Virus record (IMG/VR): IMGVR_UViG_3300007722_000045 | Location: 1 to 38,662 of that record | Length of the DNA stretch: 38,662 nucleotides | Reading direction: 5' to 3' (one strand) | From: a virus | Shown: piece by piece, positions 6,154-38,197 of the stretch | Layout of the letters: the number at the start of each line of letters is the position of its first letter | How positions within the stretch are numbered: position 1 is the first letter of the stretch | Translations under genes and position numbers: made by a program | The notes under the pieces: generated by a model | Database searches by the model: none | The model's input: only the letters and a program-made list of their open reading frames with translations | Told to the model about the DNA's origin: nothing

Positions 6154-6372
6154 TTGTCTCTCAGTTTGGAAGAGATTGACGAACTGAGTAGGAAAATGGA
6201 AAAAGAGACAAAAGCCTTAAAAGACAATCTATTCAGGCTTTGTTGGTATATGAGGGGCGGTATGACTATATCCGAAGCATACAATCTAGCACCTGATGAT
6301 TTAGAAGTCCTTAACATCATCATTAAGGACAATATGGAAACTACTAAGAAAAGCGGATTGCCGTTCTTTTAA
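6154..6372 (+). CDS. Small tail/hub assembly protein downstream of gp26 (gp51-like position)
   Basis: This protein of about 72 aa has an acidic helical N-terminus (LEEIDELSRKMEKETKALKD), a central LCWYMRGGMTISEAYNL, and a short end KKSGLPFF. It looks like a conserved small protein that follows gp26 in marine T4-like phages; that impression is from memory. Position matches T4 gene 51 (hub assembly), but T4 gp51 is much longer, so orthology is doubtful. No ATG exists before codon 15. The start is probably TTG at 6154, or TTG at 6166, because the ATG at 6196 would cut off the helical N-terminus. AAGG overlaps the end of gp26. Its stop codon overlaps the stop of the convergent gene. Confidence 0.65.
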   Translation: MSLSLEEIDELSRKMEKETKALKDNLFRLCWYMRGGMTISEAYNLAPDDLEVLNIIIKDNMETTKKSGLPFF

Positions 6373-6884
6373 ACTGCTTTGCCGCCACGCACTACTTTAG
6401 GCTTTGCTGCCGGCGTTCCGGGAGGAGCCATTTTACTAACAGTCTTCTTAACTGGTGCTGCTTGATTTGTAATACCTAAGTCTTGTGCAAGGATAGCAAG
6501 AATTCTTTGCTTGCTTTTTTTATCTAATTTGGCAACTAAATCTTTTGTTTGTCTATAATTTGAAACTGCTGCAAGTTGTTGTGTAGATTGTCCCATTGCT
6601 GGGTTAACTTTATTTGTTGCAGTAGTTGGGTTACCTGCTACTGCTGATTTGCCTGCATTATAACCCTGCTTTGCTGCCTTGCCCATACCAGCAATACCAC
6701 CTGCTACTGCGCCAGCACCTTTGGCAACACCGCCTACTACTCCAGGAACACCCATTGCAGCACCTTTGGCTACCTGACCTATGCCTTTGGCAACTCCTTT
6801 GATACCTGCTTTAGCAGCATCCCATCCAGGACCTTCATTTAATTCTCGAATAGCAGATTCGGATAATATTTGATCTATACGCAT
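6369..6884 (-). CDS. Gly/Ala/Lys-rich protein with a capsid-targeting-like N-terminus; possible internal (ejected) protein
   Basis: This 171-aa protein begins MRIDQILSESAIRELNEGPG. Residues about 20-75 are a run of GxxxG-type repeats rich in Gly, Ala, Val and Lys, with almost no acidic residues. A basic helix (TKDLVAKLDKKSKQRILAIL) and a Pro/Lys-rich basic tail follow. The N-terminus holds two matches to the T4 prohead protease consensus (L/I)-x-E before A/G/S: LSE-S and LNE-G. It also parallels the short targeting peptide of T4 internal proteins. The start at 6884 is preferred over the upstream in-frame ATG at 6911, because that ATG lies at the expected transcription start of the TATAAATA box and has no ribosome site. 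AAGGA sits 10 bases before 6884. The function is inferred. Confidence 0.6.
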   Translation of the reverse strand: MRIDQILSESAIRELNEGPGWDAAKAGIKGVAKGIGQVAKGAAMGVPGVVGGVAKGAGAVAGGIAGMGKAAKQGYNAGKSAVAGNPTTATNKVNPAMGQSTQQLAAVSNYRQTKDLVAKLDKKSKQRILAILAQDLGITNQAAPVKKTVSKMAPPGTPAAKPKVVRGGKAV

Positions 6885-6914
6885 GATGTTTGTTTCCTTA
6901 ATAGCGAACATGAT

Positions 6915-6922
6915 TATTTATA
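6915..6922 (-). promoter_or_regulatory. T4-type late promoter (perfect TATAAATA) for the Gly/Ala-rich gene
   Basis: The minus strand reads TATAAATA from 6922 to 6915, followed by AT. The expected transcription start is near 6909, giving a leader of about 25 bases with an AAGGA ribosome site and the ATG at 6884. Confidence 0.75.
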
Positions 6923-6928
6923 TTAATA

Positions 6929-6947
6929 AGATGTACTGCGTACATCT
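6929..6947 (-). terminator. Strong hairpin, possible minus-strand terminator before the late promoter
   Basis: AGATGTAC (6929-6936) pairs perfectly with GTACATCT (6940-6947) around a 3-base loop. On the minus strand the stem is followed by TATTAATAT, which is only weakly U-rich. It then runs into the late promoter of the next gene. It could end the transcript coming from the gp47-SegE operon or insulate the promoter. Confidence 0.35.
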
Positions 6948-6971
6948 GTTCTTTGCTATCGCTCGAACTGT

Positions 6972-6979
6972 TATAAATG
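6972..6979 (+). promoter_or_regulatory. Possible plus-strand late promoter (TATAAATG)
   Basis: TATAAATG is 7 of 8 matches to the late box, pointing into the noncoding region with no gene ahead. The expected start near 6985 lies just before the 13-bp stem at 6995-7039. It is a candidate start for a noncoding transcript. Confidence 0.35.
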
Positions 6980-7204
6980 AAGTAATAATGATATGCGAAG
7001 CACTTAAACTATTATCTAGATTAAGTGGTCACACTTCGCCCGCACAGGGCAAAGAAAAAAATCTGCATTATCTGAGTAGCGCAGCCACATAGTGTTAAAA
7101 CTACAAAGTATTTCTACTTAACACAGGCGGTTGTCCGATACCTGCTCGTCTTGTCTTATTACAACGGCATGTTATGCATTAAACACTATCTTATTGCACA
7201 ACAC

Positions 7205-7235
7205 TGTAGGCGTTTGTTAAACCCTACATCTTTTT
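7205..7235 (+). terminator. Rho-independent-like terminator, plus strand
   Basis: TGTAGG (7205-7210) pairs with CCTACA (7223-7228), and GTTT (7212-7215) pairs with AAAC (7219-7222). This gives a 10-bp stem with one bulged C and a 3-base loop. TCTTTTT follows directly on the plus strand. No plus-strand gene precedes it, so it would end a noncoding RNA. Confidence 0.45.
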
Positions 7236-7409
7236 GCCTATTCAATTCTCTTCAAACAACTAAATCGCAGGTCTTGATTAGCGATCTTCATCCTTTCGGG
7301 TAGTAGTTGAGTACTCTTAGCGGCGAGAGTTTTCCATCCCTGCGATTCGTAATCCAGGTTTAGGGCGTCCGATATTTGCCGACGCTTGCTTGTTACCGCT
7401 TAAGGTGCC

Positions 7410-7838
7410 TTAAATTTTAGATTTTATGTGAGAGCCATGGACACGGACTTGTATATGTCCGTTATAGTATTCGTCGGATTCTAATACTTTGCGCTCGAAT
7501 TGTTCTCGAGCCTCAATGTAAGATGTTTCTGATTTTGATTTACAGTAATAGAGGATTTCTCTAGTGAATTTATCTGTGCCTAATGCTACAACGTCTGTTG
7601 TTAGATTAGGACTCGAGCCATAATATGTTTGCCAGTCTGATTCAATTTTGCCTCGAATCTTTTTTTTCTTCTTTGTGCCGTTCTTTAACTTTACAGTCTT
7701 GTAGGTCGTTTTACTAAATTTTGCTAATTTCTTACCAATATACTTACGCCCGGTAATTGTGTTAGAGATAAGATATACAAATCCAACACAATCTTCGGGC
7801 AATTCATTAATTATACTGCCTTGATAAGTCCAAGTCAA
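7410..7838 (-). CDS. GIY-YIG endonuclease, SegE-like
   Basis: This 142-aa protein has the GIY-YIG layout. GFVY (19-22) and KYIG (32-35) form the two name motifs. A Lys-rich insertion, SDWQTYYGSS, TREILYYC and a C-terminal EAREQFE segment (likely catalytic Glu) follow. The pattern matches the SegE-like GIY-YIG family of T4-like phages, a group of usually free-standing DNA endonucleases linked to homing. The start is TTG, directly after the stop of the Hc1-like gene; the family's early W-x-Y-x-G motif begins right there, and no ATG fits. It is the last gene of the gp47 operon and borders the structured noncoding region, so homing into this intergenic site is a possible origin. Cutting activity is not shown by sequence alone. 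Confidence 0.8.
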   Translation of the reverse strand: MTWTYQGSIINELPEDCVGFVYLISNTITGRKYIGKKLAKFSKTTYKTVKLKNGTKKKKKIRGKIESDWQTYYGSSPNLTTDVVALGTDKFTREILYYCKSKSETSYIEAREQFERKVLESDEYYNGHIQVRVHGSHIKSKI

Positions 7839-8036
7839 TTACTGTGCAGCCTTTTTTGCTTCAACACGAGCATTCTTTTCTGCTGTGATTTCGTTGCGAC
7901 GTGCCTTGACAGCCTTGCTCATTTCTGCAAGTGCTTTACGAGCACGAGTTCCTGCTGCCGCATTACCTGCAGCAAATTTTGCATCTTCTGCCATGTATGC
8001 ATCAAACGCTGATTGAAGTTCATTTTGTGTACTCAT
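7839..8036 (-). CDS. Small histone H1/Hc1-like DNA-binding protein
   Basis: This 65-aa protein is rich in Ala, Lys and Arg. Its centre, FAAGNAAAGTRARKALAEMS, matches the core of bacterial Hc1-type histone H1-like proteins (usual form GNKAAGTRARKAL...). A basic helix follows (KAVKARRNEITAEKNAR) and the end is Lys/Ala-rich. Such proteins bind and compact DNA without sequence preference. Here it is encoded next to gp46/gp47, so it could coat phage DNA or affect host nucleoid and recombination substrates; this is inference. AAAGGAAAA precedes the ATG, and the gene overlaps the upstream small gene by 4 bases. The motif is short, so a structural coincidence cannot be excluded. Confidence 0.65.
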   Translation of the reverse strand: MSTQNELQSAFDAYMAEDAKFAAGNAAAGTRARKALAEMSKAVKARRNEITAEKNARVEAKKAAQ

Positions 8037-23200: not shown

Positions 23201-23645
23201 ACCTATTAAATCTATAAGCGATCAAATTATTTACAGACCTGCAAAATATAAAGTATTGTTTGGATCTAAAGCAACTAGAAATTTACAGGCAACATTTAAA
23301 GCAGTAAGAAACAGCACTCGTCCTACTACAGACAACGATCTAAAAGCAAGAATTTTATTAGTAATCGATCAATTTTTTGCTCTAGAAAATTGGGAGTTTG
23401 GACAGACATTTAATTTTAGCGAACTATCTACATATGTTATGAACATAATGAGTCCTGATATTACAAACTTTATTATTGTACCTAGGGCGAATGTTCCATT
23501 CGGTAGTTTATATGAAATCACTTGCCAATCAGATGAGATATTAGTAAACGGAGCATCAATTGATGATATTGAAATTATTGATTCGATTACTTCTACTCAA
23601 ATTAACGCCACAACAGCACTAACTAACAGCACAGGAGTTTATTAA
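20247..23645 (+). CDS. gp6: Baseplate wedge protein gp6
   Basis: This 1132-aa protein is the wedge scaffold that dimerises into the inner baseplate ring (T4 gp6 is 660 aa). The N-terminus is characteristic: YKNADFKSYDFETVRRTMIA, then YIALIDLIAYLGQNLSFRVD and NARENFLETADRRDSVLRLA. The central conserved stretch KAPQSYYTQNRMITAEDYNI and the C-terminal ILLVIDQFFALENWEFGQTF also fit gp6/baseplate J proteins. The extra ~470 residues seem to lie mainly between these blocks, as beta-rich insertions. It has its own perfect late promoter. Its TAA stop shares a base with the next ATG (TAATG). Confidence 0.95.
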   Translation: MIPATNSKLLVTEDWKKVYQSYKNADFKSYDFETVRRTMIAYLREKYPEDFNDYIESSEYIALIDLIAYLGQNLSFRVDLNARENFLETADRRDSVLRLAQLINYNASRNNPANGLLKLTAISTTDDVFDANGSNLANTIIGWNDTSNLNWYQQFVSILNSAMPASVVFGKPYDKKPIAGVPTEQYKINSANTDVPIYSFTKVIGGVNMPFEITSCEFSSSNVINESTPAPGSPFNFIFKNDAKGSASPNTGFFVHFRQGALNVTNFSLDNPVPNEIVGINASDINDADVWLWQLDANGNYVTEWTKVNSLTGNNIIYNSTSIDKRNIYTVTTRENDQIDLNFADGTFGNLPKGQFSLFYRQSNGLKYYIKPEQVNGVQIEVPYFNKTGQPQTITMTLSLQYTVSNSEASESNASIKQKAPQSYYTQNRMITAEDYNIAPLTASSDIIKIKSINRISSGISKYYELSDVSGKYSSTNIFGSDGIIYKDAVTQSFNFTFSSNNAIYSALSTELIPALESAAMKNFYYENWPRPALTDPIVSWQQLTKSTNQTTGYFKSSIDNVPLQTGIFSGNNLQYAAAGSLIKFVAPAGQYFLPTGKLTSTQDNTTKDILWVKVATVIGDGAYGGLGALPNGTGPVILTQHVPSSAIAEAIIPSFDTILSFNLQADIVGLCNSKRNFGLSFAQDTRTWYIINDTDLDLTSPFKLTYQKDATNTNLDSSWLFAFVWNGIGYTVRYRSTEYIFESKKETAFFFDKTSRNFDFTKNTLVKDQVEILKINNNPLDGTPLKLGHLWQVEENVIEPDGYIEPKKIKVSFFDELDDNQIDNPDSFEDIVAPASTSTQTTFKDKFVYFVRSDNYQTYSLIDSTNVLAYPTEAAVPSNAKSVDNLYYFYNPAENIIKSYNGTEFVLEPLYFAKEGRSNLKFHYKHNSGENRRIDPSKSNIIDVYLLTANYDIKYRNWLLEDNSNEPLPPTSSSLEENYAAALEPIKSISDQIIYRPAKYKVLFGSKATRNLQATFKAVRNSTRPTTDNDLKARILLVIDQFFALENWEFGQTFNFSELSTYVMNIMSPDITNFIIVPRANVPFGSLYEITCQSDEILVNGASIDDIEIIDSITSTQINATTALTNSTGVY

Positions 23646-26600
23646 TGGCACAAAATAATAACAAAAAAGGTTTGAAAAAATCTATAAATTTGTTGCCTGT
23701 TCTTTTTAGAACTGAAAAAAACAATAAGTTTTTATCTGGAACTATTGATCAACTAATACAAACTCCAGCACTTAAACGCATTGACGGTTGGGTAGGTAGT
23801 AAAATAACTCCTACTTATAATCCGTTAGCAGATCTTTATATATCTTCTAATTTAAAATCAAAACAAGATTACCAATTAGAACCTGCGTTAGTTGTTACTA
23901 ATGATGTTTTTAAAATTAAAAAAGCAACTTCATACGATGATTTGTTGAATCAATTAGAGTTTGAAGGAGCCAATGTTTCTAACCACAATAGATTATTAAC
24001 ACCTGAGACATACTCTTACGACCCGCACATTAATTGGGATAAGTTTGTTAATTTTGAAAAATACTATTGGTTACCGACGGGCCCTGCAACTGTAAGTATC
24101 TCTGGCGAAACTAAAGAAATTGTAAGCACTTATAATGTTTATGATTCTGACGACGGCATGTTCTATGTGTTTAATCCAGACGGCTTAACTCCATTACCTC
24201 AAATTACATTATATCGAGGCGTCACATACAAATTTAATATTAAATCAGCGCATATGTTTTGGGTCAAGTCTGCTAGAATAGCAGGAACTGAAGGAGCATT
24301 TAGAGGCGCTCAGAATAACGGAATTACAGAAGGTACTGTTACTATTACTGTAGATGAAAGAACACCTAAGACTCTTTACTTTGTTTCTAAAGATAATGTG
24401 TTAAATGGCGGCGAATTTGTTATTAAGACATTAGATGAAAATTCTGTAATTGAAATAGACAAAGAAATTTTAGGAAAGAAAACATACACTTCTTATTCTG
24501 GTGTTGATTTTACTAACGGGTTAGTTATAAATTTTGTAGGAAATGTATACCCTGAATTTTATAGACAAAAAACTTTCATAGTTGAGGGTGTTGGTAATAG
24601 TATTAAACTAGTTGATGTTGCAACTCTCGAAACTCCCGAGCAGTTTGCAGAAGTGTACGACGAAAAGTTTGATAATACTTTCTTCGATTCATATGCTTTT
24701 GATCAATCTAACAACATTGCAGTTACACCGGAATATATTACAATCAATAGAAGCAGTCAGGATTTAAACCCTTGGACTCGTTACAATCGTTGGTTTCATG
24801 AAGATGTTATCAAAACTTCTTGCGAAGCAAACGGTGTGCCAGTATTACTACCGTCTGAACAAAAAGCCAAGCGTCCTATTATTGAATTTAATGCTGATTT
24901 AAAACTTTACAATTTTGGCGGCTGGGCTAAAAAGAATGTGCAGTTTATAGATACTACGACTACTGATGTGTTTTCAACCGCCGAAGGCGCATTAGGCTAT
25001 TATGTCAATGGTGAAGAACTAGGGCAGGGTGATAGAGTAATCTTTTTAGCAGACACTGACGACTTTGTTAACGGAAAAGTGTACGAAGTTAATTTTGTTC
25101 CTATTGCAGGTAAACTTAGAATTAGTTTAGAAGAAATTGCTGACTCTGTCCCTGCCATTGACGATTGTGTTGTAGTAACAAAAGGCACTAATTTAAAAGG
25201 AACTAATTGGTGGTATAATGGAACTACTTGGGTTTTAGGACAACAAAAGACTGTGTTAAATCAACCTCCGTTGTTTGATATATTTGATAGCAACAGAAAT
25301 TCGTACTCTGATGAAACAATTTACAAAGGTAAATTTTCAGGAACAAAAATATTTGGATATAGTGTAGGTAACGGTGCAGTTGATACAGTACTAGGTTTTG
25401 CATTAAAATATAAAGACGTTTCTAATCAGGCATATTATTTGTTTGAAAACTATTTCATGAAAGATGAGTTGTTAGTGATTAACGGTTCCGTTAGTTCAAC
25501 TATAGAAACTTCAGTTGGGTTTATTAAAGATAACACAAATAGAAATTCTCCTGTTTACAAAACCGTATGGACAGATTCAGTATCTTATAATATTCCTGTA
25601 ATTCAATATAATGTAATTGAAGAAGAAATTACTGAAATTGAAATTACATCTATTAAAAATCCTGGTTATCAAGATATGGTAATAGATGTATTTGTTAACA
25701 ATGTAAAGCAAACTATTGATGTTGATTATTCTTTATATGCATCTGGTAGACAATATTTTGTTGCTTTTAATTCACCATTGCAACCTAAAGATAGATTGTA
25801 TTTAAAAATAATTACATCTGCAGAAATAAGTGCTACAGGATTTTACGAAACATCTATTGGATACTCAAACAATCCTTTAAACTTTAATATCAATGGATTT
25901 ACACTAACTGAATTGTCAGATCATGTAAAAACTATGATTGATAGGCACCCGGACTTTACTGGTGTATTTCCGGGTAATGGAAATATTAGAGACATTGCTA
26001 ATTTAACATCTTACGGTACTAGATTAATTTCTAATAAAACTCCGGCAGCATTTGCAACATATTTTATTGCAAATGACGAATTTAGTTTAATTAATGCTAC
26101 TAAAACAATTGCGCAACATTATTCACAATTTAAATTAGCATTAATTGATCAGATTAACAAATTGCAGGGAACATACTCTCCTGCTCAAGCATTAGATATT
26201 GTGTTGCACAATATAAATGCTAATAAAGATAACAGTTTTCCTTATGCAATTAGTGATATGGTTGCATACGGAACAGATGCAGTTACTAGAACATTTCCAG
26301 TCACTGATAAAAGAAATAAAGTATATTCTCTAGTTAATGTTTTTAATTTAACAGAACTATCTTTGAGATCAGTAATTGTATACCATACTGATAATGCCGG
26401 AGTAACAACACAATTATTACACGGTAGGGACTACGAATTTGATTTATATAACAATTCATTTACTGTTAACATAGAACTAGTTAAAGGCGATATTATTACA
26501 GTTGATGATTATCCTTCTACTGAAGGATGCTATGTACCGCCCACGCCTACTAAGTTGGGATTGTATCCTAAATTTGAACCTTCTATATATCTAGACACTA

Positions 26601-29600
26601 GATACACTACTCCAGTTAATGTAATACAAGGTCACGATGGAAGTATAACAGTTGCATTTAATGATTATAGAGATGTTATTATTTTAGAATTTGAAAAACG
26701 AGTTTTTAATAATATTAAAACAAATTATCGTCCTGAATTGTTTGATATTATATCATTTACTCCCGGAGCGTTTAGAAATAATCCTTATACAAGAAAAGAA
26801 ATAAACGAAGTATTGTTAAAAGAATTTTCAAAATGGGACAATTTTTACGGATTAAATTTTACCGAAAATAATACTGCAACTGAGGATCCAAAAACATGGA
26901 GTTACAGTTCAAGTGTTAGTAGCATAACAGGAAGAAATTTACCAGGCAACTGGAGAGCAATTTATAAGTTTTTCTTTGATACTGATCGGCCTCATAGTCA
27001 TCCTTGGGAAATGCTAGGGTTTTCTATCAAGCCTAGTTGGTGGGACAATGAGTACGGTCAAGCACCTTACACTAAAGGTAACAAACGTTTATGGAATGAT
27101 TTAGAAACTGGTTCTATCAAAGATCCTTCTGGAATTATAATTAATTCTTTATATGCAAGACCCGGATTGTCAAACATAATTCCTGTAAATGAGTCTGGTG
27201 AATTATTAATGCCTGCTCAGGCAAACATTGCAACAAATGTTGATTATTTAAAAACGTCTAACAGATGGGAATTTGGCGATCACGGCCCGGTTGAATCTGC
27301 TTGGAGAAAAAGCAGTCTATGGCCATATGCTTTACAAATTTTAGCAGCATTAACTCAGCCTGCAAAATACAGTTCTTTAATGTTTGATACTAGTAGAATA
27401 GAAAAAAATATTGCTGATCAATACATATATTCTGCAACAGGCAAATTTTTAAACTTGTCTAATTTGGTATTATTTCAAGAAACACCTACTACACTTGCTG
27501 CTGGTTACAGTGTATTCTTAATAGAAGCAGGCAAACAAAAAAATAGAAATTATATTGCTAATTTAAAAAGTGAGTTGAGTCACATAACTTTTAAATTGTC
27601 TCATAAACTTGGCGGATTTGTAAACAAAGACAAATTAAAAATTACTATCGATTCTGTAAATCCTTCTAACTCTAACCCCGGAGTTGCTATTACTAACGAA
27701 GATTACGAAATATTTTTAGATAAGAGTAGTCCAGTTAAATCGTTAGGCATTAGTGGAGTCATTGTTGAAAAAACAAACAGAGGATATTCTATTAAAGGAT
27801 ATGACAATAAGATTCCGTCTTTCTATTGTTTAATGCCAATTTTTTCATCAAAAGATCCTGCAATAACAATTGGCGGAAAATCTGAATCTTTTGTTGAATG
27901 GAGTGCATCGGCATCTAATCCAATGGGAGGTTTTGATACAACTTCTGTAAGTACTAATTCCGGATATAGATTTTATAAAAAGGGTCAACTAGTAAGAAAC
28001 AACAGCGTATTTTATAGAGTAAAAGTATCTCACAATTCCGGAACTGCATTTGAAACTGCTAATTTCCAACAGTTGCCTAAACTTCCTGTTACAGGCGGTA
28101 TTACAGTACAACTTCCTTCTAAATATGAGAAAGTTGTAACTAAGGTTCCGTACGGTATTGAATATTCTACAATTTCAGAAGTATATAACGTATTGTTAGG
28201 TTACGGAAAATGGTTAGAGTCCCAAGGAGTAGTGTTTGATGAATACAATCAAGAACTACAAGAAATACTAAATTGGAATTACACTGCTAAAGAATTAATG
28301 TTCTGGGCAAGTCAAAAATGGGCACCTGGAAGTGTTATTACATTAAGTCCGTTTGCTCAAAAATTAAAGTTTGTAAATGATTATGCAGTTGTTGATAATC
28401 TTTTTAATCCGTTCTACGAATACAGCATATTAAATGCTAGCGGAAATTTATTGCCTAGAGGCAACGTATCTGTATTCAGAGAAGAAGATGATTTTATTTT
28501 AACAACTTCAAATACTCGCGAAGGAATTTATTTTACTAGATTAAATCTAATTCAAAGAGAACATACACTAATATTTGAAAATAATACTTTATTCAATGAT
28601 GTAATATATGACCATGAAACCGGATATAGACAGCGTAGAGTTAAACTAACTGGATTTATAACTGACAATTGGAACGGAGATGTATTCAGTCCCGGTTTTG
28701 TATACGACGAAGCAAATATTACAACCTGGAATCAATATGTTGATTATAGTGCAGGCGATGTAGTATCTTTTAATGGAAATTATTATGCTGCTGTCAATAA
28801 AGTAAACGGTACAGAATCATTTGATTTTAACCAATGGAGAGTATTGGGCAGTAAACCTGTTGCAGAATTAATTCCTAACTTCGATTATAAAATTAGTCAG
28901 TTTGAAGATTTTTATAGTCTCGACATTGATAACTTTGACAATGCACAACAATTAGCCGCACAGCATTTAACTGGCTATAGTCCTAGGATTTACTTAGATA
29001 ACTTAATTCCTAATGCTATTAGTCAATATAAATTTTACCAAGGGTTCATCAAAGAAAAAGGAACAAAAAATGCTATTGACAAATTAGCAAAAGCCAGTGC
29101 AACTTCCCAGAACAGCAAAATAGATTACTATGAAAATTGGGCTGTTAGAATTGGTGATTACGGATCTTTTACAACTGATCAGACTGTAGAAATTAATCTA
29201 TCTGAAGAACAATTTTTAGAAAATCCTCAAATTTTGCAAACAGTAGAAAATGTTCCTGTTGTTAAAAATAAATTTATATCTTACAAAACTTCTAAAGATG
29301 TTGTAATTAAACCTGTAGATTATAACCATATGCCGTTTGCTACAACAAACACATATAACTCTGACAGCATCTCAATGTTGCCTCATGCAGGTTATGTAAG
29401 AATTGATGATATTACTGCAACTGCATATAACAATAATAGTCTTTTAGACATTGCCAACAATCGAGGTATAAACGAGGGAAATACTGTTTGGTTAGGATTT
29501 AAAGAAAACGGCGATTGGGATGTTTTACGATATACTAGATTAAATGCAAAAATAACTGATGTTTCTATTCTAGTGCCAGGTGTTACTATGTTGGTTACAA

Positions 29601-32600
29601 CTGATTTACACCATAATATCAATCCCGGTGATAGTATAAGTATTACTCAATTTGACGGATTAGTTGACGGAATATACACAGTTGATTCCACTCCGGAACT
29701 TAACCAATTTATAATTTACTCAACTAACACTGAATTGTTCGATACATTTTATCCTGGTATAGGAATGTTGTTTAAATTTGTAAGTTCACGATTTGATAGT
29801 TTTGATTCTTTATCTTATTTAGATACACTTGGAAATATTAGACCAGGTGAAAAAGTCTGGGTCGACAATATTAATTCCGCAAATGACGTAACTAAATGGG
29901 GTGTGTATGAAAAAACAGATAATTTTTATGCTTCTAGTAGAATCCCTCCGACCACTGATTTCCAATTAACTAGCAATCAACGATATGGTTACAATATTAC
30001 GGGTAACGAAATAGGAAACCACATTGTTGTTGCGTCACCTGATTTCTATTCTAATATTACTGACACATATGGCAAAATATATACTTACAACAGAGTAGGG
30101 ACAGAACCTAGCAAGTTGTTATATACTGGCGGCATCGGCCCCCAAATATCTAAAACTGACGTTTACTATACTGGAACAAATGTTGTAATGTTTGGCTCTA
30201 GTCTTAAAATTGATTCAGATTCTGATTTAATCTTTGCAGGTCTGCCATTAGCATCATATGTTAAAGACACTAATGAAACCAATAGACTTTCCGAAGTAAA
30301 CATTAGTGAAACTCCCAATACTAATGCAGATCAAGGTGTTATTAAGATAATAAAATACAATTTTGATATTTCTGCAAATGTTAAAGAATGGGTATTTGCA
30401 AGTCCTTCGAGACATGCAAACGCTAAATTTGGGACCGACATTTTTGTAGCATCTACTTCTGCAACATCTAAAATTGTGTTTGTATCTAGTCCCGGACAAG
30501 ACAGTTCAAAAGGTGCAGTACACTATTCTAGATTAGATATTATATCTACTGCAACAATAGAAATTGCTACTAGCACAAATGTTGAATTAGATACAACAGG
30601 TGTTATTGCTGGTGCAAAATTTGGAACCAGTATTGCAGGTAGTGTAGATGGCAGAATTATTGCAGTAGCAGCCCCCGGTGATGTTTCTGCTGGTGTTGGC
30701 GTCGCCAACACCGCCACTCCTAATAGCGGTGCAGTACACATTTATTCCACTACAGATTTTGATGAATATACAAGAACTCAAACTATTACTGTAGATGATT
30801 TATTTGTTTCTAATGTTGTTCAAGAAGGTGATTTGTTTGCTTCTAAAATAGTAATGGATAAAGCAGGCAGCACTTTATTTGTAACAGCACCTAAGGCTCA
30901 CGACAATTTAAAAATTGGTAAAGTACTAGTCTTTAAATCTGTTTTAACAGGAACTTACGAACTTTCTCAAGTCATTGTTAATCCTTATACATCTAATGGG
31001 TATGATTTTGGAACTGACTTAGAAATCAGCCCTGACGGAAATACTTTAGTTGTTTCTAGTCTAGGGGCCAGTCACAGACCGTATGTTACATTTGATGTAC
31101 ACGTAGATACTGTTGACGGAGTTGATTACTTACTAGACGAAACAAGTGAAGAAAGACCGTCTTCTACTACTTTTGATTCCGGAACAGTACAGTTTTACTC
31201 TACATTAAAAAATTCTGGAGCAGTTTATACTTTTGTTAAAGGCACTGATCAATTTGTGTACGGTCAAGAACTGTTTGATAATTCAGTACAGACAGATCAA
31301 TTATATGGAAATAGTTTATATATTTCTAACAGCACAATTGCAATAGGCGCCCCTGGACAAAAATTTGATAGTTCTCAAAATTGTGCCGCATATTTTTACG
31401 ATACAAAAACTTCTAGTTTGAACAACTGGTTAATTGTTCGAGAGCAAGAAGATTTAGTTGACTTATCTAAAATACGTGCAGTTAAAACAATTGACACTCA
31501 GGAACAAAATGTAGTTGATTATTTAGAAATCATTGACCCTATTAAAGGTAAAATATCAGGAACAGCAGATCAAGAACTTACATTTAAGTCTTTATTTGAT
31601 CCTGCAATTTACTCTATAGGTGTTGACGGAGTTGTAACTGACAACAATGCCAACTGGTTAGATGACCACGTTGGTGAGTTATGGTGGGACCTAAGTGTTG
31701 TAAAATACGTGTTATATGAACAAGGAGAATTAGAATTCCGCCGCAACAATTGGAATAACTTATTCCCTGGTTCTACAATTGATATTTACGAATGGGTAAA
31801 GTCGCCGTATCTTCCATCACAGTGGGCTGCAATTGCAGATACAAATGAAGGACTTGCTGCCGGCATCAGCGGTCAGCCTAAAAACTCTGACAACTCTGTA
31901 GTATCAGTTAAACAAAAATGGGATCCGGTTTCTAACTCGTTTAGCAATGTATACTATTTCTGGGTTAAGAATAAAGTTACAGTTCCTGAATCGATTAACA
32001 GAAGAATTAGTGCATATGAAACTGCTATATTGATTGCAGACCCTAAAAAACAAGGTTTAAAATTTGCCAGTATTATTGCTAATGATGCAGTCATGTTGAC
32101 AAACATGCAAGATACAATAGTTGCTAACAAAATAAATTTATCTATTAACTTTGATACGATTGATAATCAAAATAATAAACATACTGAATGGTTGTTATTG
32201 CAAGAAGGTAATTCTACAGACAAACCTGTAGCATCTCTTGTTGAAAAAATGATTACAAGTTTAATAGGAAAAGATTCTGCTAGTAACTTAGTTCCAGCAG
32301 ATAGTTTACCTAGCAGAATACGTTACGGTATCGGCACCCGTCCTCAACAATCTATGTTTGTTAACAAGATTAATGCGTTGAGATCATTTGTTGAATATGC
32401 AAATAGTGTTTTGATAAAAAATAATATTGTTGATGTTGTTAATTTAGAAAAATTTAATAGTGCAGATACAATTCCAAATTCTATATACGGTCATTACGAT
32501 GCATTGGTAGAAGATTTAATTGAAAGAGATTTTACAATCGTAACTAGAAAGTTGCAACAAGCGCAATTAGCATGCACAGTTGTTAACGGTAGAATTGTAA

Positions 32601-35600
32601 ATGTACAGATTATTAATCCCGGTTTTGGATACGGACAATTAAACTCTGTAGCAGATGTTTATAATGTTGAATCTAACAACTGGATCGGTCCTACTGTAAA
32701 AGTTCAAGGTAATGGTTACGGTGCTGAATTAACTACTGAAATTAATGCGGCAGGCCAACTAGTTAAAGTTAATATAATAAATCAAGGCATGGGATATACT
32801 TCTGCTCCTTCTTTAACTGTGAGACGTTATACAGTTGTTGTTTCTGCAGATGACACAGTTAATAATCGTTGGAGCAAATACATTTGGGATTATACAAATA
32901 AAAAGTGGATTAGACAATATACACAAAATTATAATACTCCACAATTTTGGAATTACGTAGATTGGACAGAGGAAACATACAATCCTTCTCAAGATATAAT
33001 TGCAACCATTGATGAACCATATCAATTAAATGTATTAACAAACATACCGGCTGGAAATTACGTAAAAATTAGAAACGCCGGTGACGGTAGGTATTTAATT
33101 TTACGAAAAGTAACCGAAGATCAAGCCGTAGGATCTTATAACTTAGATTACGATTTAGTTTATCAAGAAAAAGGTACTATTCAAATTAGTGATGTATTGT
33201 GGAATACTCGTCAATCTGTGTTTGGCTGGGATCAGCAAGCAGGTTGGTCGTTAACACTATTTGATCAACAACCTACAGTAGAAATTGAAAATATTCTTCG
33301 TGGAATTTTAGATGATGTATTTGTTAATCAACTAAAGGTATACTATAACTTGATTTTCTTTAAGATGGTTAAGTATGCTGTTAGCGAACAAAAATTTATT
33401 GATTGGGCATTCAAAACTGCGTTTATTAATGTAGTTAATTATGCGGGAGCACTTGATCAACGACCTGTGTACAAACTAAACAACGAAAATTATTATAATT
33501 CTTACATTGAGGAAGCCAAGCCGTTCCATACTCAGGTTAGAAATTTTACAGTTAACTATACAGCAACTGACGTTACTAATGCTATTATAACTGACTTTGA
33601 TTTACCAAGTGTGTATGACATTGAATTGAAACAATTTAGACCAATTACTTTTGGTAGTACTGAATTGAATCAATACCCTTGGAAGTCTTGGGCAAATAAT
33701 TATACTTACTCTGTAGGTGAGATTGAAATCTTTAGTGGCGGCGGTGGATATGATGTTCCTCCTATTGTGGAGATTGTTGCACAACCTGGAGATACTGGTT
33801 CGGGTGCAAAAGCCGAAGCATATATTGCACTAGGAAAAGTCTCAAAAATTATTGTTACTAATCCAGGAACAGGGTATACTGCTACACCCATTATTAATTT
33901 ATTAGGCGGCGGCTCTACACAATTAACAACTGCAAAAGTAGGTAGTAGACTAGTTAACGATAAAGTACGATCTAACAAAGTTACAATTAAGTTTGATAGA
34001 GTTGCAGGATACAATGAAGTAACTACATTGTCTGCCACTGACAACTATGTTGTTACAACTAAACAAACTGAATTTCCGTTAACATGGGTTCCTAATCCTG
34101 ATAAGAATTTTATTGTTGTTAAAGTTAATGGAATTAGAGTGTTGTCCGGCGATTATTCTATTAAATTATATACAGAAAAATTTAATGGATACAGTAAGAA
34201 ATTTGGATCTCTTATATTGGTTAATCTTCCGGGAAATAAATCCGTAGTTAGCATTACCTACAAAAAAGATAGTTCTTTGTACAATGCAGTAGATCGTATT
34301 AGAGACTTTTATTCACCAACTGACGGTATGCCTGGTAATACTGCTACTATGTTAATGTTAGGGTTAGAGTACCCTGGTGTAACGGTTGACACATTACCAT
34401 TTGCTGAAAGCGCAGGATGGGATAGCACACCATTTGGAGACAGCAATTGGGATGACTACATACCTGAAGAAGGTTATTATAGAATAGTTAGCACTGGTAC
34501 TACATCTACTTTTACATTGCCTTATGTACCTTCTTTAGGTGAGCGTATTAATGCATACTTAACCAATGTTGGCGCCGACAAACCAATTAGAATTGATGAT
34601 CCATATTTTAACGATTACAACGGAGTAACTGTTCAACCTAATGGAAGAAAAACTGCTCCTGCAGGATCTACAATGGAAACTTTTGTAGGAGACGGATATG
34701 TTAACTCAATTGATATTGCAACAACTTCTACAGGTATAATTGAATTTAGATTAGAAGCAAGTGATGGATCTAGTCTTGTAATTGACCTTGATTTAGACAC
34801 TTATGTATCTGGCGGCAGTGTTATTGACGGAATATTAAGTCGCTCTGATGATTTAGAAGATATCAATATAGACGGTGATGCGTTTGTATCTACTACTAAT
34901 AGTTACGGTCCTGAAGAAAATTTACCAGGTCGAGTATCTGATACACTTGGTATGAATGTTTACACATATCCTAACGCCGGCGCTGCGTTAGTAGTTAACA
35001 AAAAGTATATTCGAGATACTGATGTTGTAAGATACGACATTGGCCACGTACCACCAACATCTGAATCTGTTGAAGTTTTACTTGACAATATAAAATTAAC
35101 AAACAATGTAGAATATACAATTGATTTTAAAACAAATGAAATTGTATTAGAAGTTGATCCGTATTTGGCAATTCGCGGCCCGTTCTACAGCACAGAAGAT
35201 GTGTTGCCAACAGGCGGCGGCGAATTAGTTTCTGGACCAGCCGGCGACGATACTTCTACAGGACCTTATAGTTTAGGATTCCAATGGAATATGTTCGGAA
35301 CAAATTACAGTCAAGTGCATATAGGAACTAACGGATACTTAACATTTGGCGGAGGCGACAATCAATATTCTCCATTAGCATTAGGTCAGTTAATATATCC
35401 TGCTATCTATGTTGAGTATTGTGACCTGTGGCAAGATTACGGTATTAATACATCTACTGGTGCAAGAGATGTTCCTCTTTCAAGCGGTGCCATTCCGGGC
35501 ATATATGTAACAACTGGTACTGTTGGAAACTTTAATTACTGGAAAATGCGTTTTGCTGGAACACATTATGATCGCCGAAATGCAACAGGTGCAACAGTAC

Positions 35601-38197
35601 CTGCCTACCAATATGAAGTGACATTATACTCTGATGGTGCAAATCAGTATGTTGAGATGATTTATGAAAACACTTGGAGAAGTTTAAGTGTTAACGATGA
35701 CTTGGCATTTGTTGCAGGTATTGCACAAGGCCGAGTTGGATCTACTCTCGGCGAAGGTGTAGAAGTTAATTATGAATTTATTCCGAGTAATAGCAGTCAT
35801 GTATACTACAGTACTGCTAATGGAGGTAACTGGCAATATGCAGGCCGAGGTAGTTTTAATCCTTTTGCTGATCCTACTGCAATACAACCGGGCGTTATCT
35901 CGTTAGACAATGCAGTAGTTATTACTGTTATTGACGAGTCAAGTATATCTGCTGCTGAAATTGAACTTGAATGGAATAACTTTAGAACACATTATCCTAA
36001 TAGACGCTTCTGTTTGTTAAGACCTGAAGAAGATTTAAACGGTAACGATATTAAAGTCCCCCCAAATTTTACTGGAAGTTTTAGAGCGTTAGGTCCTATT
36101 GATGTTAACCGTGATAGAGGTGATGTAGATCGTGCTTCAGATTGGTTTATATTATGCAGTCTTGAAGCATTACGACCTGGTTCAGTAGTAGGTCTTGCAA
36201 TTGACAATTCTGGCAGTATGTTGCCTGCCTCTGTACAAGCATCTATTGATTTGTTCTTATTAAAGGCTAACGCAGCCGGACTAATAGTTGACTACAGATT
36301 AATGCCTAATGAAAACTGGGCACTCATGTGGGACGTTAATGATCTATTAGAACCTGCAATCGATGAATTTAAATCACAATTACTTTCTATTACTACTATT
36401 GATGTCGGCGGCAAAAATATGTTGCAGAAAGATTCAATAAGAATCAGTAATGCAACAGCAAAAAATAATTTTATTTTTGCACCTAGTGCAACAGATGTTC
36501 GTAGCAGTTATGTAACAGTTAATGGTATTAAGAAAACAAATTACACTATCTTTGGGACAAATGGTACTACAGGAAGAGCAGTTTTAAAATTTACAACTGA
36601 TCTTAACACAGCCGACTTATTACAAGTTTGGTTGTTTGCTGCTGATCCTAAAGCGTATAGCGAGGTACAAGAACAGGTAATCAATGCCAGCGTAAGTCAG
36701 CGCTCATTTACTTTATTGTATCCTCCTGGCAACATAGAACCAGCACATAGTCAAATTATTGTTGAAAAAGACGGAGTTCGTTTAACACCTCCTGATACAG
36801 TTTATTATGTTGCTGCTGCCGGACAACGAATTTTTAGTTTAGAACAGCATACTAATTATCCACAAGGATTGCCAGATGCTGCAACAGTAGAAGTATATGT
36901 TAACGGAGTTAGAAAGAAATTTAGTCGTTCGATCAAACTACTTCAAAATCAAAATGTTGTACAATTTAGTCAAACTTCAATCAATGACGGAGATGTAATT
37001 GCTATTACTATTCTTCGTAATAACGACTATGCTGTTTATAATGGAAAACTTGAATTAACTAATAGAGTTGATGTAAGTAATTCTAGCATTATTAAAGTTA
37101 CTACTTTTACTAACCACGACAGTAGCCAATTCCGAAAAGAACGATTCCCAGGAACAGCAAGCGGAATATTTAATCTAAGTAGAAAAGTTTTAAACAGTAA
37201 TTATGTTTGGGTCGAAGTTAACGGTAAACCTGTTACTAGAGGCGTAGATTTTTATGTTGAAAAAGATAAGAAAACTGTTAAGTTTTCTAACAACTATCCA
37301 TTGACTAAAACTGACGTTGTGGTAATTACTACTGTATCTGATCAGATATCAGATACGTTAATTGGGTATAGAATTTTCCAAGATAATTTAGGAAGAACAC
37401 ATTACAAGAGATTAAGTGCTGCACATTCTACTCAACTTGCTGCTAATTTTTCTACTACTGATACAGAAATAACAGTAGAAGATGCTAGCGTATTAACTCC
37501 TCCTAACCCGGGAAAAAATTTACCAGGTATTATTTTAATTAATGGTGAACGCATTGAGTTTTACAGAATTGAAGGTAACAAATTGTATGCCATCCGTAGA
37601 GGTACATTAGGAACTGGAGTTAAAGCAGTACATAAAGAAGGTAGTCTAGTTATAGATCAAGGTCTAAAACAAAGTATATATGTGCCTGAATACAATGTAA
37701 CTGATAAGTTCTCAGTTAATACTACAACGGCAATATGGACAATGACTAATATTATTGTTGACCAAGACTTAGATTACAACAATATTGATATTACATATCA
37801 AGGACGTAAATTAAGAAAACCGGGGCAAGTATACACTGTTACAGATACTTCTGTAGCATATGATTCTAATGAAATTAACAGTTACGGAACTTTGTCAAAT
37901 GTAACATTAATTCCTGAGTTTAGTATTAATACATTGACAAATTCTGTTACGTTGGCATTTAATCCTACATTAAATTCTGAATTAATATTATCTCGTCATA
38001 CTCTACACGATGTAGGCATTGGCTATGTAGCATTACACACTAGAGATACTGAACAAGTTAAGTTCTTGTTATCTCGACCATCTTTTGTGCCAGATAAATA
38101 CTACTATGGTCAGAACGCTGATACTGAGCAGTATATTGTTCTAGAAGGCGGCGATACATTAGACAGCGAAACCGGAGATCCATTAATAGGTCAATAA
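23645..38197 (+). CDS. Giant baseplate protein, gp7-like position, with multiple adhesin-like modules (4850 aa)
   Basis: One uninterrupted frame of 4850 codons follows gp6; T4 gp7 there has 1032. The N-terminus ([50 protein letters not shown]) resembles wedge proteins of marine T4-like phages. Modules by eye: cupredoxin-like fold at 187-265 without evident metal ligands; mixed structural repeats to about 2100; seven FG-GAP-like units at 2120-2590; four NPGxGY-type motifs near 2989, 3046, 3364 and 3404; a nidogen-like segment about 3855-4060; a MIDAS-like DNSGSM at 4187-4192; and beta repeats near the end, including [20 protein letters not shown] at about 4625. It is translationally coupled to gp6 and followed by a fibre gene. 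It probably forms the outer wedge and contributes to host contact. The gp7 link is positional. Confidence 0.8.

What the first reader, a model, noticed from the sequence alone, without database searches (positions are those of the whole stretch)
6885..7409. Half-kilobase noncoding island full of stems inside a packed phage operon region
Genes here overlap or are separated by a few bases, yet 525 bases carry no gene and at least nine inverted repeats, several perfect with short loops. Base composition is less AT-skewed than flanking intergenic DNA, with GC-rich arms such as AATCGCAGG/CCTGCGATT and GCGTC/GACGC. This looks like one or two structured RNAs. I recognise no tRNA, tmRNA, RNase P or group I intron. 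It adjoins a SegE-like GIY-YIG gene, so an RNA-plus-nuclease mobile unit is one option.
Basis: partly seen in the sequence, partly recalled or inferred. Interest (0 to 1): 0.8.

Follow-up and report, generated by a model that had tools for sequence, protein, structure and literature searches.

The report
Large phage RNA with twin words
The gene-free stretch encodes a roughly 480-base structured RNA of giant phages, of which only the first third was catalogued, and which carries two copies of a short word that differs between phages but almost always stays the same in both copies.

Summary
The island is real, and it is one structured RNA on the MINUS strand, about window 7409 to 6929. Its 5' third (7254-7390) matches Rfam RF01718, Polynucleobacter-1, at 115 bits (cut-off 37). 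The other ~340 nt match no Rfam family above its cut-off. In 113 non-redundant viral homologues they carry covariation like the Rfam part (0 of 300 shuffles reach the score). So RF01718 looks like the 5' domain of a ~480-nt RNA of T4-like jumbo phages (contigs up to 345 kb). Its place is fixed: SegE gene upstream in 101/101 loci, baseplate-hub gene downstream in 71/73; the next ORF is convergent in 59 of 98, which argues against the 'probably cis-regulatory' label of 2010 and against a mobile RNA-nuclease unit. The strangest feature is a pair of 7-nt words, 56 nt apart, after a CTC and a TCT that never vary in the phages. The words are identical to each other in 112/113 RNAs although the word changed about 40 times on the tree. 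Chromosomal relatives in Burkholderiales show nearly the same with other words (8/10 identical), beside a DUF6641 gene (10/10). I think both copies read one partner; the partner is unknown. Structured RNA ~0.97; mechanism ~0.4.

The parts
6929..7409 (-). whole structured RNA, about 481 nt (5' end near 7409-7399, 3' end at the terminal hairpin)
   Evidence: homologues in IMG/VR, covarying pairs from 7399/7320 to 6947/6929; exact ends inferred
7254..7390 (-). 5' domain = Rfam RF01718 Polynucleobacter-1, 115.2 bits
7320..7399 (-). helix 7394-7399 / 7320-7324, extends the Rfam model at its 5' side
   Evidence: outermost pair 103/106 paired, 5 pair types; the four inner pairs 76-90%, so less certain
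7170..7227 (-). new domain: helix 7225-7227/7214-7216 and long hairpin 7205-7211/7170-7176 with 7190-7194/7179-7183, strongly covarying
7086..7165 (-). new domain: helix 7148-7152/7097-7101 enclosing hairpin GGTAYCGGACAACCGCC (7135-7145/7124-7130), conserved core
7067..7076 (-). twin word copy 1: CTC + AGATAAT (word 7067-7073)
7034..7054 (-). hairpin between the twin words (GCCC..GGGC)
7011..7020 (-). twin word copy 2: TCT + AGATAAT (word 7011-7017)
6948..6968 (-). hairpin GTTC-GAGCGATAGCAAA-GAAC (GAGCGnnAGCGA type) next to the 3' end
   Evidence: same kind of element in bacterial copies
6929..6947 (-). 3' terminal hairpin AGATGTAC-GCA-GTACATCT, covarying; likely terminator (inferred)
   Evidence: lies at the end of convergent genes in other loci
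6915..6922 (-). TATAAATA, T4-type late promoter of the downstream gene (motif recalled)
7410..7838 (-). neighbour upstream: SegE-type GIY-YIG endonuclease (PF19835), not part of the RNA
6369..6885 (-). neighbour downstream: glycine-rich protein, own late promoter; this gene slot is variable among relatives

Best explanation
The island is the gene of a single ~480-nt noncoding RNA of T4-like jumbo phages. Rfam's Polynucleobacter-1 is its 5' domain (shown); the 3' ~340 nt form further conserved helices and end in a hairpin (shown by covariation). It is transcribed on the minus strand, probably read through from, or cut out behind, the SegE gene, and it ends at the terminal hairpin (inferred). 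It acts in trans (inferred from the lack of a fixed downstream gene). Its working surface is probably a pair of identical 7-10-nt words carried on either side of a hairpin: both copies read the same partner (a nucleic acid by pairing, or a protein), so when the partner differs between phages or hosts, both copies change together (co-identity shown, partner and binding inferred). The adjacent SegE is a fixed neighbour, not a part of the RNA.
For: Rfam hit 115.2 bits. Of 140 core-motif matches, a relaxed 5' motif was found within 400 nt upstream in 85, always 204-221 nt away; 16 of 16 long records tested carry the Rfam domain, once each, six of them among the 55 whose 5' motif had been missed. 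Home-made tree-aware null on 114 sequences (20 null alignments): 25 significant column pairs, 20 of them standard pairs in >=70% of sequences, 9 inside and 11 outside the Rfam domain. New part: 54 pairs, 94.3% paired, covariation 0.448 against 0.17 in shuffles (0 of 300) and at most 0.121 when slid. Twin word: identical in 112/113 and in 143/144 distinct loci that match the twin pattern; the word changes about 40 times on a tree built without these columns; CTC 113/113 and TCT 113/113 fixed. Ten bacterial loci: 7-mer identical in 8, one letter off in 2. First ORF behind the RNA (mechanical call, >=70 aa) convergent in 59, same strand in 39; ATAAATA present in 35/39 against 5/59.
Against: No transcript was seen. 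No complement of the word covaries inside the RNA, and no further copy or complement is clearly enriched within 2.5 kb or in the bacterial loci. Folding of single sequences does not show the words clearly unpaired (0.44 and 0.52 against 0.41 overall). The words are purine-rich in phages (RRATRAD), which fits free choice of a target poorly and could mean a structural or protein-binding role. An invariant U/G-rich stretch (~7250-7261) can pair by wobble with the whole word in about 50 of 113 sequences, but it does not vary with the words and I saw no counterpart in the bacterial copies by eye. The 39 shared-branch changes follow almost by necessity from identical tip letters, so they are no extra proof; the evidence is identity at the tips plus the number of changes, and exchange between phages could inflate that number.
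Confidence: 0.42

Rival explanations
1. The RNA is structured and acts as a scaffold or RNA-only complex like GOLLD, ROOL or OLE; the twin words are symmetry-related contact sites between subunits or to one phage protein, not target readers.
For: Size, phage home and many helices resemble those RNAs (of the GOLLD/ROOL/OLE paper PMC12286853 only the search listing with the start of its abstract was seen). Words stay purine-rich. No nucleic-acid partner was found.
Against: No Rfam match to them. A fixed contact would not be expected to change about 40 times unless its protein partner changes too.
Confidence: 0.3
2. Cis-regulatory leader of the downstream gene, as marked for Polynucleobacter-1 in the 2010 survey.
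For: Weinberg et al. 2010 (PMC2864571, table and legend passages seen) lists it as probably an RNA (y), probably cis-regulatory (y), riboswitch ambiguous (?), in Burkholderiales and fresh water/estuary. Its text says that motifs commonly upstream of coding regions were usually assumed to be cis-regulatory.
Against: First ORF behind the RNA is convergent in 59 of 98 loci; a terminal hairpin closes the RNA; same-strand genes have ATAAATA behind the hairpin in 35 of 39. In bacteria the fixed neighbour DUF6641 is divergent.
Confidence: 0.05
3. Mobile RNA-plus-nuclease unit built by the RNA and SegE.
For: SegE hit upstream in 101 of 101 loci with enough DNA, directly adjacent in 95. Several bacterial copies lie near tyrosine recombinases.
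Against: Fixed surroundings on both sides (gp46 64/66, hub 71/73); one copy per record (16/16); no DUF6641 in 16 and no recombinase of that type in 15 phage records tested; no gene is seen to be interrupted in the window.
Confidence: 0.06
4. The twin words are kept alike by copying between repeats (gene conversion or slippage), without any shared partner.
For: They are direct repeats 56 nt apart in the window, and similarity extends more loosely to flanking positions.
Against: The CTC and TCT directly beside the words never mix (113/113 each; 50/50 rows with 7 bacterial ones); conversion tracts would have to stop at exactly that point each time.
Confidence: 0.08

Closest known systems
Polynucleobacter-1 RNA, Rfam RF01718 (141 positions)
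   Same: window 7254-7390 (-) matches the model end to end, 115.2 bits against a cut-off of 37
   Different: here and in the 113 aligned viral homologues the RNA goes on for ~340 nt with its own covarying helices, twin words and terminal hairpins; most copies that I found are in viral contigs of the jumbo-phage type; the cis-regulatory label does not fit there
GOLLD / ROOL / OLE large ornate RNAs
   Same: large structured RNA, partly phage-linked (recalled; start of the abstract of PMC12286853 seen)
   Different: no match in the Rfam scan; smaller (recalled); twin-word feature not known to me in them
IS110 bridge RNA (recalled, no call)
   Same: one RNA with two separate short recognition segments; some bacterial relatives here lie near recombinase genes
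   Different: recombinases here are tyrosine-type and not found in the phage records tested; the two words are identical, not two different guides; no target found

Membership tests
Polynucleobacter-1 RNA (RF01718) | covariance-model score at or above 37 bits | tested here: met
   115.2 bits, positions 1-141 of 141
Polynucleobacter-1 RNA (RF01718) | a stand-alone 141-nt element (the extent of the Rfam model) | tested here: not met
   covariation continues over ~340 nt downstream in phages; the same core follows in bacterial copies
Polynucleobacter-1 RNA (RF01718) | probable cis-regulation of a downstream gene (2010 label, not a defining feature in Rfam) | tested here: not met
   59 convergent against 39 same-strand first ORFs, ATAAATA in 35 of these 39
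GOLLD, ROOL, HEARO, IMES | Rfam model match | tested here: not met
   no hit at gathering; with E up to 10 in 6600-7700 only four other, sub-threshold hits on the plus strand, E 0.47 or worse
tRNA / tmRNA | ARAGORN or Rfam match | tested here: not met
group I/II intron or homing unit | interrupts a gene; mobile between sites | tested here: not met
   lies between genes, fixed synteny, single copy; no Rfam intron match
intrinsic terminator at the 3' end | stem-loop followed by a T-run on the minus strand | tested here: inconclusive
   covarying stem-loop at 6947-6929, but the tail TATTAATATA has no T-run; the pattern scan calls it only on the plus strand, and one such site is expected by chance
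trans-acting RNA with two target-reading words | a partner complementary to the words | tested here: inconclusive
   no covarying partner inside the RNA, none enriched within 2.5 kb; host and whole phage genomes not searched

The most novel reading that the evidence does not exclude
A bivalent guide RNA: two identical words, separated by a hairpin and set off by fixed CTC and TCT, hold two copies of one target sequence (or read it twice in succession). In Burkholderiales the same RNA stands beside a DUF6641 gene (10 of 10 loci), with a short, FimB-sized tyrosine recombinase within about 2 kb downstream in 6 of them and, in about half of the islands, repeated palindromes such as TGTCGTTTWAAACGACA; there it could steer site-specific recombination, an RNA-directed tyrosine recombinase without precedent to my knowledge. 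Jumbo phages would use the same RNA against, or have borrowed it from, such islands.
Probability: 0.08. Interest if true: 0.95.

Novelty: new variant of a known kind. Interest (0 to 1): 0.66.

Why it matters
A catalogued orphan RNA turns out to be less than a third of a much larger, single-copy, fixed-place RNA of jumbo phages. That redefines the family, moves its main home to phages, undermines its cis-regulatory label and gives a clear 3' boundary, so that transcripts, structure and partners can be looked for. The paired words that differ between phages yet agree within each RNA are an unusual natural experiment: about 40 changes kept in step say that something reads both copies, and comparing phages with different words is a direct way to find it.

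Tried and rejected
Blastn of the region and of bacterial copies against named phages and plasmids: no match. DUF6641 protein against named phages: no match. RF01718 and DUF6641 in PA5oct, Atu_ph07 and Phosso: no match, apart from one chance RF01718 hit of 13.2 bits in Phosso. PA5oct has a 663-nt annotation gap at the same place with a similar-looking hairpin, but neither Rfam nor my model R1 recognises it, so I do not claim it. R1 came out as little more than a sequence profile (2 base pairs), and fold_alignment of the same rows likewise gave only 2 pairs, because phage and bacterial rows were aligned by sequence and the hairpins shifted; the covariation case rests on the phage-only alignment in the Python box. 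R1 also failed to find the second type of DUF6641-linked RNA and the weak copy in L218/L241. A viral scan with a bacterial-type core pattern found nothing.

Rejected: pairing of word 1 with ATCT of copy 2 (RNAalifold), because it does not hold in bacteria; these four pairs, and three pairs between 5' domain and copy 1 (columns 96-98/313-315), are in neither set (37 + 54 of 98 pairs counted). The structure was derived from the same alignment, so its lead over the slid versions is partly built in. Pairing of the words with the U/G-rich stretch near 7250-7261: no covariation. Words as copies of attachment sites or of the island palindromes: no clear excess copies nearby. GCTAAATA as an island-wide promoter: 9 found against 6.8 expected, so at most RNA-specific. 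Of the 11 genome contigs pattern hits, 3 (L186, L188, L192) are confirmed by Rfam; the other 8 were judged chance by eye from the printed sequence and not scored. L106 was dropped as a chance core match (113 of 114 kept); still held it. Six of the 70 loci were too short for the first alignment.

Full report
WHAT IS THERE. Between the SegE-type GIY-YIG gene (7410-7838, minus strand, PF19835) and the next minus-strand gene (true start probably 6885) lie about 520 bases without a gene. Rfam finds one family in the whole window above a cut-off: RF01718 Polynucleobacter-1 at 7254-7390, minus strand, 115.2 bits. For the remaining ~340 bases downstream on the same strand nothing reaches a cut-off; a permissive scan gives only four sub-threshold hits, all on the plus strand, E 0.47 or worse. 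The inverted repeats alone are only weakly more than chance and folding energy is modest (z -2.65); comparison decides the case.

HOMOLOGUES. Among 140 core matches in the loci held, a relaxed 5' motif (up to 3 and 2 substitutions) is found within 400 nt upstream in 85, always 204-221 nt away; in 55 it is not found, some of them because the contig is cut. Of 16 long records tested, six of which are among these 55, all 16 carry RF01718 above the cut-off, once each, in contigs of 48-345 kb. From 164 core or 5' matches with enough flank, clustering at 90% identity left 114; one (L106) is a chance match and was dropped from most later counts.

STRUCTURE. With a home-made null that re-places each column's substitutions on the tree (20 null alignments; not R-scape), 25 column pairs are significant: 20 are standard pairs, 9 inside and 11 outside the Rfam domain; of the other five, three are the twin words below and two are unexplained or alignment effects (7300/7290, 7147/7124) (L106 still included). 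On the RNAalifold structure the new part has 54 counted pairs, 94.3% of cells paired, covariation score 0.448; shuffles give 0.17 (0 of 300 reach it) and slid versions at most 0.121. The Rfam part gives 0.354 against 0.16. One of the four measures is weaker in the new part: the number of pairs with changes on both sides (33) is reached by 17 of 300 shuffles. The RNA ends in a covarying hairpin (6947-6929). It lacks a T-run, so calling it a terminator is an inference.

SURROUNDINGS. SegE is found upstream in 101 of 101 loci with enough DNA (directly adjacent in 95), gp46 upstream in 64 of 66, the baseplate hub downstream on the other strand in 71 of 73. The gene slot between RNA and hub varies: the first ORF of >=70 aa behind the RNA, taken mechanically, is convergent in 59 and on the same strand in 39 loci, with ATAAATA, the core of the T4 late promoter (recalled), behind the hairpin in 35 of 39 against 5 of 59. 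This speaks against the 'probably cis-regulatory' label given in 2010 (PMC2864571, passages seen) and against a mobile unit. The phage is T4-like: portal, baseplate, gp46/gp47-like and late sigma genes; the nearest named relatives by late sigma factor are jumbo phages such as PA5oct at 47% identity.

TWIN WORDS. Three of the significant pairs are not base pairs but equal letters in two direct copies: CTC + word (7076-7067) and TCT + word (7020-7011), 56 nt apart in the window, around a GCCC..GGGC hairpin. The 7-mer takes 11 forms (RRATRAD) yet is the same in both copies in 112 of 113 sequences and in 143 of 144 distinct loci that match the twin pattern. On a tree made without these columns the word changes 40 times in copy 1 and 39 times in copy 2, while CTC and TCT never change. 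All 39 fall on shared branches, which follows almost necessarily from the identical tips and is no separate proof. Some flanking positions agree more loosely (93%, 85%, 76%, 70%). No complement covaries within the RNA or is clearly enriched within 2.5 kb. Single-sequence folding leaves their exposure open. I read this as two sites for one partner; the partner is unknown, and a protein is as possible as a nucleic acid.

BACTERIAL RELATIVES. RF01718 is above its cut-off in 4 of 399 genomes drawn from the order of the Aquabacterium MAG and in 5 of 299 from the family of a betaproteobacterial MAG, samples that overlap and include those MAGs, plus one weak case (25.8 bits). In the ten bacterial loci examined a DUF6641 gene (PF20346) stands divergently upstream, 10 of 10. 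DUF6641 is in 17 of the 399 genomes, including all 5 with an RNA match, but in none of 16 phage records including the window's own (the tool warns that this does not prove absence). A short tyrosine recombinase lies within about 2 kb downstream, same strand, in 6 of the 10 loci; three loci end too soon to tell and one (L218) has none. Aligned with 43 phage rows, 7 bacterial rows keep the core, CTC and TCT. Their words differ (AACAAAA, AGCGAAA, AGAGAAA, GGCGAAA and others) but are the same in both copies in 8 of 10 loci and one letter off in 2; some loci share a word, so these are not ten independent cases, and in the weak case TCT reads CCT.

LITERATURE. In the held library (open PMC papers) 'Polynucleobacter-1 RNA' is in no paper; 'Polynucleobacter-1' with RNA, 'RF01718', and Polynucleobacter with phage and structured RNA only in the 2010 survey; DUF6641 in none. 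A broader search (two of jumbo phage, noncoding RNA, structured RNA) listed 15 of 1,283 papers, none of them on such an RNA by its listing except the 2010 survey. Most subscription papers and preprints are not in the library, so the longer RNA may be described elsewhere.

VERDICT. Structured RNA over the whole island: ~0.97. RF01718 as the 5' domain of a longer RNA: ~0.95. Trans-acting: ~0.8. Both words read one partner: ~0.4.

Noticed in passing
L221, L223, L226, L234, L242 (beside DUF6641): A second, different candidate RNA (around GGGTTGTAATATGACGGCTAATGA, with variations) divergent to DUF6641, sharing the two 3'-terminal hairpins; no Rfam match. Paired words are doubtful there: L221 and L226 show no direct repeat of 7 nt or more, the others do.
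   Followed up: partly
L209, L211, L212 and their genomes: Perfect palindrome TGTCGTTTWAAACGACA, 4-10 copies per genome in 5 of 6 genomes; in three of them all copies lie within about 20 kb of the RNA, in G624 3 of 10, in G034 none; a sister form GTCCTTTTAAAGGAC in L210; none in L213, L214 and L216-L218. Integron-like or operator sites?
   Followed up: partly
window 7334-7364 (-): CCUAAA...GAUGG around the CCUG/CAGG helix resembles the 11-nt GNRA-tetraloop receptor (recalled), suggesting a tertiary contact.
   Followed up: no
L195 13717-14379 (PA5oct 76517-77179): 663-nt annotation-free gap at the syntenic place, with a GTGAACTGTAGTTCAC hairpin like the 3' hairpin here; not recognised by Rfam or R1.
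   Followed up: partly
bacterial loci, e.g. L209 8754, L215 1519: GCTAAATA directly upstream of the RNA in 6 of 10 bacterial loci, reminiscent of a T4 late promoter; not enriched island-wide.
   Followed up: partly
window 7839-8036 (-): 65-aa histone H1-like Hc1 protein (PF07432) near the gp46-like gene.
   Followed up: no
window 23645-38197 (+): One open frame of 4850 aa after the baseplate wedge genes, presumably a giant tail or fibre protein; not searched.
   Followed up: no
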